Below, piece after piece: positions 17,477 to 44,901 of a DNA stretch of 64,000 nt. The notes beneath the pieces were generated by a model. That model saw nothing but the letters and a program-made list of their open reading frames with translations, did not search any database and was not told the origin of the DNA. Origin of the DNA: Deltaproteobacteria bacterium HGW-Deltaproteobacteria-18 (lineage in GTDB: Bacteria > Desulfobacterota > Desulfovibrionia > Desulfovibrionales > Desulfomicrobiaceae). The position numbers were made by a program, and so were the translations under genes. Location: contig PHBE01000009.1 in the NCBI GenBank assembly GCA_002841885.1, positions 1-64,000 on the forward strand, in the 5' to 3' direction. Every line of letters starts with the position of its first letter. Position 1 is the first letter of the stretch.

Positions 17477-18790
17477 ATGGCTAAACATGCGACCCCGTTG
17501 CTGGATCAGCTTCAGAGCGGTCCGTGGCCGAGTTTTGTGGCGGACATCAAGGAGGAAGCCGAGAGACGTCATAAAAACGTGAATAGTGTGGAATACCAGA
17601 TTCCTGTTGACGTTTGTGATGACCTTCTCGGAATCCTGGAGCTGTCCTACAAGGATGGCACCACTCACTGGAAGCACGGCGGCATCGTCGGCGTTTTCGG
17701 TTACGGCGGCGGCGTTATCGGCCGTTATTGTGACCAGCCCCAGATGTTCCCCGGCGTTGCTCATTTTCATACCGTTCGTGTCGCTCAGCCTGCAGGCATG
17801 TACTACACGACTGAGTTCCTGAATCAGCTTTGCGATCTGTGGGAGATGCGTGGCTCCGGTTTGACCAATATGCATGGCGCCACCGGCGACATCGTGTTGC
17901 TGGGAACGACCACTCCTCAGCTGGAAGAATTCTACTTTGAGCTGACTCACAAGATGAATAACGACCTGGGCGGTTCCGGTTCCAACCTGCGTACCCCTGC
18001 TTCCTGTCTTGGTGACTCCCGTTGCGAATGGGCTTGTTACGACGCTCAGGAACTGTGCTACCAGATGACTCAGGAATACCAGGACGAATTGCATCGCCCT
18101 GCATTCCCCTATAAGTTCAAATTCAAGTTTGATGGTTGCCCGAATGGTTGCGTGGCTTCCATTGCTCGTTCCGACATGTCCTTCATCGGTACCTGGCGCG
18201 ACGAAATCCGCATCGATCAGGAAGCTGTTGCCGCCTATGTTGGTGGTGAAATCCAGCCCAATGGCGGCGCACACGCCGGCAAGGATTGGGGCGCTTTTGA
18301 CATCGAGAAGGAAGTCATCGGTCTTTGCCCCACCGAATGCATGTGGATGGAAGACGGCAAGCTGAAGATCAACGACCGCGAATGTACCCGCTGCATGCAC
18401 TGCCTGAACGTCATGCCCCGCGCTCTGCGCATCGGTAATGACCGTGGCCTGTCCATCCTGGTTGGCGCCAAGGCTCCGATCCTGGACGGCGCACAGATGG
18501 GCTCCCTGCTCGTACCTTTCATCAAGGTCGAGGATCCTTACGATGAGGTCAAGGAAATCATCGAAGGTATCTGGGAATGGTGGATGGAAGAAGGCAAGAA
18601 CCGCGAGCGTCTTGGTGAACTCATCAAGCGTCAGGGCTTGGCCAAGGCCATCGCCGCTGTCGGCCTGACTCCTGTGCCCCAGCATGTAATGGAACCCCGT
18701 CACAACCCGTACATCTTCTGGAAGGAAGAGGACGTTGAAGGCGGCTGGGATCGCGACATCGCGGATTACCGTAAACACCATCAGAGATAA
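17477..18790 (+). CDS. dsrA: dissimilatory sulfite reductase alpha subunit
   Basis: DsrA forms the alpha2beta2 sulfite reductase with DsrB, reducing sulfite with electrons from DsrC and the membrane complex. The protein has 437 residues. The siroheme-[4Fe-4S] site is formed by Cys177 and Cys183 ([13 protein letters not shown]) and Cys221 and Cys225 (GCPNGC). The inserted ferredoxin domain has Cys284, Cys288, Cys303, Cys306 and Cys309. The length and all cysteines are as expected for a reductive-type DsrA. AAGGAGG precedes the ATG. dsrB follows after 14 bases. Confidence 0.98.
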
Positions 18791-42848: not shown

Positions 42849-43670
42849 CTAGCCTTTGAGCACGGTCTTGTCCATGAACACGATAACTCCGATGAGGGCG
42901 CCGATGAACACGAGGACAAGCATGAAACCCGAGCCGCCGGATTCCTGGGCAGCCTGGGCGTCGTCGGCTGCTGCCGCGTGGACTGTTTCGGCGGGAGCAG
43001 CGTGGCTTTCTGCCGGGGCGGCGTCTTCCTGGACCATTGCCTCATGGGTTTCGGTGTCCGCTTTTTCTTCCGCTGCGGGAGCCAGAGCTGCCTGCGCTTC
43101 GGCCGCGGCTGCGGTTTCAGGCGCAACTTCTGAAGCAGGTTCGGCAGCCCCCTCAGCCTCGGTACCGGAAGGCAGCGTGAGCAGGTACTGTCCGACCAGA
43201 ATCTGCAGTTCCGGGTGAGCGCCCAGGACCGTAACGGCTCCGCTTTGCGCGTCGACCACGGCGCCTACGGCTGAGATCTGGCCTTTCATCACCGCATGGA
43301 TCAGATCAGGAGAAGCTACCAGCGTATTGGCATATACCGTCCACACGGCATCTTCGGTCAGCCCGAGAACAACGACCAAGGGAGCGGTGAGGTCGGCGCT
43401 CTTGACGGCAATGCCGGTCGTGGGTGCAAAGCCGCCTTCGGGCTTGACCACGGCGATCCGTGATTCGCTCATGCCAAAGAGATCGGCTGCCGGTACGGAG
43501 ATGGCCGGATCGGCGATGACGATGGCCAGGGGAGCGGGCGCAAGGCTTTGTTCCAGTACGAATTTTTCATTGCCCAGAGTCAGGGCTTTCAGGGCTGCCT
43601 CCGGAGCGGCGGCCAGAGCGGACACGGCAACGGCACAAAAGAGCACCGTCAGGGAGAGGATTCTTTTCAT
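42849..43670 (-). CDS. zinc-less carbonic anhydrase paralogue (pseudoenzyme)
   Basis: A 273-residue secreted protein built like its neighbour at 41618: signal peptide, a shortened beta-carbonic anhydrase-like domain, an Ala/Glu-rich stalk (about residues 170-235) and a C-terminal membrane helix (FMLVLVFIGALIGVIVFM). Matching blocks are ALKALTLGNEKFVLEQ versus GLKMLTEGNLRFALGQ, VIADPAISVP versus VIACSDSRVP, VVVLGLTEDAV versus LMVLGHSYCGAV, and GAVTVLGAHPE versus GKVNILGTHPN. All zinc ligands are lost (Cys77 to Asp54, His130 to Leu104, Cys133 to Asp107), and so is the Asp-Arg dyad. The gene is intact with a good AAGGAA site, so it is a maintained non-enzyme rather than a pseudogene (inference). 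Confidence 0.78.
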   Translation of the reverse strand: MKRILSLTVLFCAVAVSALAAAPEAALKALTLGNEKFVLEQSLAPAPLAIVIADPAISVPAADLFGMSESRIAVVKPEGGFAPTTGIAVKSADLTAPLVVVLGLTEDAVWTVYANTLVASPDLIHAVMKGQISAVGAVVDAQSGAVTVLGAHPELQILVGQYLLTLPSGTEAEGAAEPASEVAPETAAAAEAQAALAPAAEEKADTETHEAMVQEDAAPAESHAAPAETVHAAAADDAQAAQESGGSGFMLVLVFIGALIGVIVFMDKTVLKG

Positions 43671-43703: not shown

Positions 43704-43919
43704 TCAAAGAATGCCCGGGTCCGAACCGTTCCCGGAGCACAAGCCTTGTTTGTATGCTTCTATGGCGTCCTTGTAAGCGCTGGCCAAGACGTCACTCCCG
43801 CAGGACCTGCAGGAGATGCGGGCCGCGGCTCACCTGCCCGTGATCTGCGCTGGTTTGTCACAGATCGGGCAGGGAATGTGGTCGTTTTCGCGGGAGTGAT
43901 CCCGCTTGTTATTTTTCAA
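43704..43919 (-). CDS. probable small selenoprotein with two CxxC motifs
   Basis: A 71-residue frame read through an in-frame TGA at 43830-43832 as selenocysteine (residue 30). Before the TGA is CPIC (residues 17-20), after it CRSC (37-40) and a helix, SAYKDAIEAYKQGLC. Fourteen bases after the TGA is a hairpin with arms CTCCTGC and GCGGGAG and loop AGGTCCT, very like the AGGUCU loop of bacterial SECIS elements. The only usual start in frame is TTG at 43919, overlapping the end of the Tim44-domain gene. I recall an NCBI family called dual CXXC motif small (seleno)protein, which fits, but cannot verify it. The alternative is a decayed gene with a stop mutation. Confidence 0.68.
43795..43815 (-). 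other. SECIS-like hairpin
   Basis: On the minus strand, CTCCTGC (43815-43809), loop AGGTCCT and GCGGGAG (43801-43795) form a seven-base-pair stem with one G-U pair. The apical GGTC lies 22 bases after the TGA. Bacterial SECIS elements sit within the coding region just 3' of the UGA with a GU in the apical loop, as here. Confidence 0.65.
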
Positions 43920-44760
43920 GTTGCTGAATGCCTTCCACTACCCAGTGTTTCTCGCCGCCGGTTTCGTAGCGGCTGAAATGCCAAGCCTCGCGAACCTGTT
44001 CGGCCGGAGCCGATGCAGAGTCCTCGCGCAGCATGGTGTCAAAGAGAACCGTGGCGATGGTCTGGTTGCCCAGCGTTTTTACTTCAAGCAGAGTGGCCTC
44101 GAGAAGCAGGATTTCTGTCTTGCCCGGAGCGGAATCCGCCGCCGCCTGGGCCTGAATCTCGGCAAAGACATCCGCGGAGGTGAACTGACGCAGGTCATCC
44201 ATGTCGCGGGCGTCCCATGCCGCCTGAAGACGTGTATATGCAGCCTTGGCGCCTTGCAGGAAGTCGTCGGCGTCAAACCCTGCCGGATAGTTCGGGGCAG
44301 TGGGGGCGGTGTTCTGCTGCGTGGTGCGCAGGTTGTCCCATGCACCGCGGTTCATGTCGTGTACCCGGCCCGGCCCTCCTGCGGTCTGCGTGGCTGGTTG
44401 ACGGCTGCGCAGAAAACGCATGAGCAGAAAAAGACCGCCTCCGATCAGCAGGATGTCGATGAACGAGATCCCGGAAAATCCGCCGCCGAAAAAGAGCGAA
44501 CCGAGCAGACCGCCCATGAGCATGCCGCCGAGAAGCCCTCCGAACATGCCGCGTCCACCCATGGGTGAAGCTCCGGGTGCCGCCTGTTTCGACTGCGAGG
44601 AAGTGGGCGCTGCGGGTTTTTGATAGCTTTTGGAGTAGGATGGCCTGCTCCCGAAAGAACCTCCTCCGCCAAGGCGTCTTGCTTCGACCAGGTCCGGCAT
44701 GGTCAGCAAAACAAGTCCAAGGCTCAGAATGATGGCTCCCAGGAATGAGAATTTTGTCAC
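43909..44760 (-). CDS. Tim44-domain membrane protein
   Basis: A 283-residue protein. GTG at 44760 is the chosen start, with AAGGAGG five bases upstream; the longer open frame to 44823 is less likely. A first membrane segment or signal (FLGAIILSLGLVLLTMP) precedes a Ser/Gln-rich stretch and a Gly-rich segment (GGLLGGMLMGGLLGSLFFGG). A second membrane helix and a C-terminal Tim44-like domain follow (about residues 150-283: DADDFLQGAKAAYTRLQAAW through HWVVEGIQQLEK). Bacterial Tim44-domain proteins are membrane proteins of unclear function. It ends overlapping the putative selenoprotein gene. Confidence 0.82.
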   Translation of the reverse strand: MTKFSFLGAIILSLGLVLLTMPDLVEARRLGGGGSFGSRPSYSKSYQKPAAPTSSQSKQAAPGASPMGGRGMFGGLLGGMLMGGLLGSLFFGGGFSGISFIDILLIGGGLFLLMRFLRSRQPATQTAGGPGRVHDMNRGAWDNLRTTQQNTAPTAPNYPAGFDADDFLQGAKAAYTRLQAAWDARDMDDLRQFTSADVFAEIQAQAAADSAPGKTEILLLEATLLEVKTLGNQTIATVLFDTMLREDSASAPAEQVREAWHFSRYETGGEKHWVVEGIQQLEK

Positions 44761-44901
44761 AAGTCCTCCTTGATAAGTTTGATCCCGTAACCGATATGGG
44801 CACAGGATGGAAACTGGAAACATGAATGCGCGTTATTTATGATTATAATGACCCGATGAGGATGGGGAAGGGTTGTGCGCGCGGAAGAACAACTCAAATG
44901 T

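What the first reader, a model, noticed from the sequence alone, without database searches (positions are those of the whole stretch)
43704..43919. Unannotated small selenoprotein gene with SECIS hairpin
A 71-codon minus-strand frame has CPIC, then an in-frame TGA, then CRSC. Fourteen bases after the TGA sits a hairpin with loop AGGTCCT, almost the same as the apical loop of known bacterial SECIS elements, with the GU at a normal distance. Standard gene calling would miss this gene. Two CxxC motifs flanking Sec imply a zinc- or redox-active protein. It nests between a Tim44-domain protein and a zinc-less carbonic anhydrase paralogue. The presence of Sec machinery in the genome is assumed from the lineage, not seen here.
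Basis: partly seen in the sequence, partly recalled or inferred. Interest (0 to 1): 0.85.

Follow-up and report, generated by a model that had tools for sequence, protein, structure and literature searches.

The report
Small selenoprotein with two CxxC motifs

Summary
Window 43704-43919 (-) encodes a 71-residue protein with CPIC, in-frame TGA (residue 30) and CRSC. A hairpin 14 nt after the TGA meets the published bacterial SECIS criteria and shares TGCAGGTC with E. coli fdhF. The genome (genus Desulfomicrobium) has SelA, SelB, SelD and tRNA-Sec. Homologues occur in 17 of 22 genomes of the family, each with exactly one TGA at this site. Conservation continues past the TGA with third-position bias, and the SECIS stem shows compensatory changes. 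About 75 relatives in the phylum carry TGA here and two carry Cys. It is not a new kind: it forms a clade sister to NCBIfam NF041197 (OS_HP3, RxU motif) and fits the GxU motif listed for "hypothetical protein DW" (deep-Sep, 2025). It scores below the NF041197 cut-off, which may explain why it goes unannotated. The fold is probably a zinc ribbon with Sec between the knuckles; function unknown. New lead: 51 of 52 sampled genomes with this clade encode DsrA, and in five families the gene lies near dsrA or dsrMKJOP genes. In Desulfomicrobium it follows a Tim44-domain gene instead.

The parts
43704..43919 (-). Coding sequence of the small selenoprotein (71 aa, TTG start or equivalent, Sec at residue 30, terminal TGA)
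   Evidence: Translation; 17 genomes of the same family (own included) each with one in-frame TGA; codon-position bias downstream of the TGA
43830..43832 (-). Sec codon TGA (residue 30), in the GRU motif
   Evidence: TGA in every Sec-form homologue, Cys in G057 and G410
43795..43815 (-). bSECIS hairpin CTCCTGC-AGGTCCT-GCGGGAG, 14 nt after the TGA; overlaps the codons of CRSC
   Evidence: -13.5 kcal/mol; compensatory pairs; shares TGCAGGTC with E. coli fdhF
43860..43871 (-). First CxxC (CPIC, residues 17-20), invariant Cys
   Evidence: Alignment A4, invariant columns
43800..43811 (-). Second CxxC (CRSC, residues 37-40), invariant Cys
   Evidence: Alignment A4, invariant columns
43917..43919 (-). 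TTG, only common start codon in frame, inside the last codons of the Tim44-domain gene; relatives use ATG overlapping that gene's stop
43909..44823 (-). Upstream neighbour: Tim44-domain membrane protein, probably co-transcribed (inferred)
   Evidence: PF04280 E 2.5e-18; neighbour kept in most Desulfomicrobium, in G016 and in family f111
42849..43670 (-). Downstream neighbour: carbonic-anhydrase-like paralogue with no Pro_CA match, found as a neighbour only within the genus

Best explanation
The locus is a functional selenoprotein gene. Shown by sequence: the frame is under protein-level selection on both sides of the UGA at codon 30, Cys replaces it in two relatives, a bSECIS hairpin follows, and the genome carries the whole Sec machinery. 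Inferred from established bacterial Sec biology: SelB bound to the hairpin delivers Sec-tRNA-Sec to the UGA. The protein is the Desulfomicrobium member of the GxU branch (very probably the same as 'hypothetical protein DW') of the dual-CxxC small selenoproteins, sister to NF041197/OS_HP3. Inferred with moderate weight (about 0.6): the two CxxC knuckles hold a zinc in a ribbon fold followed by a C-terminal helix, and the Sec in the connecting turn is the reactive residue, working as a reversible selenol/selenenylsulfide or soft-ligand site. Inferred with low weight (about 0.2): in sulfate reducers it serves the dissimilatory sulfite reductase system or the handling of sulfide or persulfide. The confidence below is for the selenoprotein identity and family placement, not for the biochemical role.
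For: 17/17 family homologues with one TGA in place and residues conserved on both sides. Closest relatives differ downstream of the TGA mainly at third positions (L003: 0/2/9; L006: 1/2/7 at codon positions 1/2/3). Cys at the Sec site in G057 and G410. SECIS stem: 89.8% of cells paired versus 80.7% shuffled, three pairs with two-sided changes, covariation score 0.322 versus 0.184 (0/500), slid registers far lower. Hairpin windows average -12.4 kcal/mol versus -5.0 for neighbouring windows over 57 loci. SelA, SelB, SelD and tRNA-Sec present. 26/26 members match NF041197 at E <= 0.01, many also Lar and zinc-ribbon profiles; GxU and RxU form two clades, 100/100. DsrA in 51/52 gene-bearing genomes.
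Against: No protein or selenium measurement. In this strain the relatives' ATG start is gone and a TTG must be used, so expression may be weak. Part of the SECIS stem signal could come from codon constraint: against synonymous recodings the window's segment alone is only z -1.3. Zinc-ribbon structure matches are weak (mean pLDDT 65.9, no Foldseek E below 0.3). The DsrA association is confounded by phylogeny, and in Desulfomicrobium the gene is not beside dsr genes.
Confidence: 0.93

Rival explanations
1. The TGA is an ordinary stop. A 29-residue peptide, or nothing, is made, and the downstream similarity is a remnant or chance.
For: Standard gene calling ends there; this strain lacks the relatives' ATG start.
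Against: Conservation runs past the TGA with third-position bias; every homologue found keeps the frame open through the second CxxC; Cys replaces the TGA in G057 and G410; Sec machinery is present.
Confidence: 0.02
2. A true selenoprotein gene in the genus, but decaying in this particular strain because its start codon was lost.
For: Relatives start with ATG overlapping the Tim44 stop; here the site reads AATAACAAG and only TTG at 43919 is in frame.
Against: The rest of the coding sequence, the TGA and the SECIS are intact and close to the relatives' at the protein level. TTG is a normal bacterial start, here overlapping the upstream gene with a GGAAGG upstream.
Confidence: 0.07
3. The conserved hairpins are a cis-regulatory RNA (attenuator or stability element) between the Tim44 and carbonic-anhydrase-like genes, and the short frame is incidental.
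For: A second strong hairpin ends at the UGA in the six closest genomes (z about -4 against synonymous recodings), and an inverted repeat lies just after the Tim44 stop.
Against: The protein sequence is conserved in genomes where both neighbours differ, and the upstream hairpin is not kept elsewhere in the family.
Confidence: 0.03
4. A genuine selenoprotein (as in the best explanation) but with a different biochemistry: the four Cys bind no zinc and form redox disulfides with Sec (thiol oxidoreductase).
For: CxxC pairs and Sec are the usual redox triad; Cys/Sec exchange at the site.
Against: Spacing and CPxCG knuckles match zinc-ribbon and Lar profiles rather than thioredoxin-like ones.
Confidence: 0.3

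Closest known systems
Hypothetical protein DW (deep-Sep, Xiao and Zhang 2025, PMC12013277; filed as NF041197 with GxU motif in PMC13188914)
   Same: Sulfate-reducing hosts, protein with one Sec in a GxU motif, Cys homologues reported, SECIS downstream. The window motif is G-R-U.
   Different: The DW sequence could not be fetched for direct alignment.
NF041197 CxxC_Se_CxxC / OS_HP3 (Zhang and Gladyshev 2007, as listed in PMC13188914)
   Same: Two CxxC motifs with Sec or Cys between them, similar length; the same genome carries one (G000:C28, RTU).
   Different: RxU not GxU; different C-terminal region (CDRI or IIYD ends); separate clade at 100/100; window protein scores 30.5 against a cut-off of 40.
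Lar family restriction alleviation proteins (PF14354/TIGR03655) and other small zinc ribbons
   Same: CPxCG knuckle, second CxxCG, similar spacing.
   Different: Not known as selenoproteins (own knowledge); the window protein scores below the curated cut-offs.
E. coli fdhF SECIS
   Same: TGCAGGTC apex on a stem just after the UGA.
   Different: Four nt further from the UGA here; otherwise unrelated protein.

Membership tests
Bacterial selenoprotein gene | In-frame TGA conserved as TGA or replaced by Cys in homologues | tested here: met
   TGA in 17/17 family and 29 order homologues; Cys in G057 and G410
Bacterial selenoprotein gene | Sec machinery in the genome (SelA, SelB, SelC, SelD) | tested here: met
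   SelA C7 (580 bits), SelB C22 (366), SelD C23 (327), tRNA-Sec C26 (86.3 bits)
Bacterial selenoprotein gene | Selenium in the protein | not testable with these tools
   Needs 75Se or mass spectrometry
Bacterial SECIS (bSECIS model in PMC13188914) | 3-9 nt loop, 4-16 bp stem, G in first two loop positions, 16-37 nt spacing, MFE <= -7.5 | tested here: met
   7 nt loop AGGUCCU, 7 bp, 21 nt spacing, -13.5 kcal/mol
NF041197 (OS_HP3) | Score at or above the curated cut-off of 40 bits | tested here: not met
   30.5 bits, E 3e-7: related, not a formal member
NF041197 (OS_HP3) | RxU motif | tested here: not met
   GRU, with Gly at -2 invariant
Hypothetical protein DW | GxU motif, NF041197-related, Sec and Cys forms | tested here: met
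Hypothetical protein DW | Direct sequence orthology to the published DW sequence | not tested
   SMF39960.1 not retrievable here
Zinc ribbon | Two CxxC knuckles on beta hairpins | tested here: inconclusive
   Profile matches; AF2 strands, but low confidence and weak Foldseek hits
Zinc ribbon | Bound zinc | not testable with these tools
   Needs purified protein

The most novel reading that the evidence does not exclude
The GxU selenoprotein is an overlooked auxiliary of dissimilatory sulfite reduction: a selenol on a zinc-ribbon scaffold that acts with DsrAB, DsrC or DsrMKJOP, for example in persulfide/trisulfide handling or redox sensing. This rests on DsrA being present in 51/52 gene-bearing genomes and on the gene lying near dsr genes in five families.
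Probability: 0.22. Interest if true: 0.7.

Novelty: new member of a known kind. Interest (0 to 1): 0.45.

Why it matters
It confirms, from raw sequence, a gene that standard gene calling would miss and that falls below the NCBIfam cut-off, and shows that the GxU dual-CxxC selenoprotein is widespread in sulfate reducers rather than confined to Desulfosarcina. Its near-exclusive co-occurrence with DsrA, and its position near dsr genes in several families, give this function-unknown selenoprotein a first testable functional context.

Tried and rejected
Rfam scan of the region: no match. Plasmid collection: no match. The search for related loci with the full alignment failed because no stretch was conserved enough; the part downstream of the TGA was used instead and gave only four named loci. 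A third NF041197 match in the own genome (C15, 17.8 bits) lies in what reads like a nitrogenase iron protein gene in the opposite sense and was taken as chance (identity judged by eye). A conserved operon was sought as a clue to function and rejected: the Tim44 and carbonic-anhydrase-like neighbours are lineage-specific. A class-wide search returned the same genomes as the order-wide one. The 2007 Olavius paper and the 2025 Haft and Tolstoy paper were not held. A first pass over loci in the wrong orientation was discarded and redone.

Full report
Observation. The frame at 43704-43919 (-) reads through one TGA to give a 71-residue protein with CPIC, Sec30 and CRSC. The hairpin CTCCTGC-AGGTCCT-GCGGGAG starts 14 nt after the TGA and folds at -13.5 kcal/mol. 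It meets the published bSECIS constraints quoted in PMC13188914 and shares TGCAGGTC with the E. coli fdhF element, which was checked against E. coli genomes. In the window, 444 TGAs have open frame around them; 34 have some bSECIS-like hairpin, 8 are at -12 kcal/mol or better, and only this one has AGGU at the apex.

Sec machinery and lineage. The window's genome has SelA, tRNA-Sec (86.3 bits), SelB (366 bits) and SelD (327 bits), the last itself with an in-frame TGA. Named relatives place it in or very near Desulfomicrobium, order Desulfovibrionales.

Homologues. In the same family, 17 of 22 genomes carry the gene, and all 17 have one TGA at the same place. The protein is conserved on both sides: C17, C20, G28, Sec30, C37 and C40 are invariant across 26 sequences. 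Compared with the closest relatives, changes after the TGA fall mostly at third codon positions (L003: 0/2/9; L006: 1/2/7), which a non-coding trailer would not show. Order-wide, 29 TGA-bearing members were found, and a phylum sample gave 49 further genomes. Two members from family f38, G057 and G410, have Cys at the Sec site in a GKC context.

SECIS. Counted on 14 distinct sequences of the family, the 7-bp stem keeps 89.8% of cells paired (80.7% in shuffles), with three pairs changed on both sides and a covariation score of 0.322 (0.184 in shuffles, 0 of 500 as high); sliding the partner by 1-3 columns destroys it. The CxxC codons TGC...TGC close the loop, so part of the pairing is fixed by the protein; against synonymous recodings the mean z for the family is -1.7, and -1.3 for the window alone. 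Over 57 loci the segment folds at -12.4 kcal/mol on average, against -5.0 for neighbouring segments. Some lineages (e.g. L102) use a shifted hairpin register.

What family. All 26 aligned members match NCBIfam NF041197 'dual CXXC motif small (seleno)protein' at E <= 0.01, but the window protein scores 30.5 against a cut-off of 40. The same genome carries a canonical member at G000:C28 with RTU. A tree of 77 sequences splits the GxU form, including the two Cys members, from the RxU form with 100/100 support. The 2026 review lists NF041197 twice: OS_HP3 with RxU, and 'hypothetical protein DW' with GxU. DW was reported in 2025 from Desulfosarcina. The window gene therefore most likely belongs to the DW group; the published sequence itself could not be aligned here. 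The 2025 study tested D. orale, whose genome length equals that of G005, a genome in which no match was found.

Structure. Profile matches point to zinc ribbons and Lar. The AlphaFold model (five-sequence alignment, mean pLDDT 65.9) has short strands around the knuckles and a C-terminal helix. Foldseek's best hits include zinc-ribbon chains, but none is significant. A zinc ribbon with Sec in the turn between the knuckles is the working model, not a demonstrated one.

Context. In Desulfomicrobium the gene follows a Tim44-domain gene, whose stop overlaps the start codon in most relatives, and precedes a carbonic-anhydrase-like paralogue. The Tim44 neighbour recurs in G016 and family f111; elsewhere the neighbours differ, so neither is a fixed partner. 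In five other families (f31, f49, f56, f80, f94) the gene lies 0.2 to about 6 kb from dsrA or near dsrPOJKM. In the phylum sample 51 of 52 genomes with the GxU form have DsrA over its cut-off, against 134 of 338 without it. Relatedness inflates that contrast, and the five families may share one ancestral arrangement, so it is a lead, not proof.

Verdict. A real selenoprotein gene, correctly read by the first stage, in a family already on record but uncharacterised.

Noticed in passing
window 43833-43873 (-): A strong second hairpin (CCTGCCCGATCTG...CAGATCACGGGCAGG) ends directly before the Sec TGA; kept in the six closest genomes (z about -3.4 to -4.3 against synonymous recodings), not in the rest of the family.
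   Followed up: partly
window 43890-43905 (-): Perfect inverted repeat GCGGGA-TCAC-TCCCGC just after the Tim44 stop, where relatives have their ATG start; its arm CTCCCGC is complementary to the SECIS 3' arm GCGGGAG.
   Followed up: no
G000:C28:1265-1423 (L037): The same genome has a canonical NF041197 (RxU) selenoprotein gene, so both paralogous branches coexist.
   Followed up: partly
L145 (G050) and G202:C187: The GxU selenoprotein gene lies about 0.2 kb upstream of dsrA.
   Followed up: partly
window 17501-18763 (+): dsrA of this genome lies in the same window, about 25 kb from the selenoprotein gene.
   Followed up: no
G000:C23:27995-28912: SelD of this genome and of 17 relatives is itself encoded with an in-frame TGA.
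   Followed up: no
L102, L103, L108-L111, L114, L115, L118, L120: In these relatives the hairpin after the Sec TGA is in a different register (GGTGAG-GTGT-CTCACC type), so the SECIS has shifted while the protein site stayed.
   Followed up: no
L111 and L117: Two relatives show a TAA inside the profile match besides the Sec TGA, near the C-terminal end, i.e. they are a few residues shorter.
   Followed up: no
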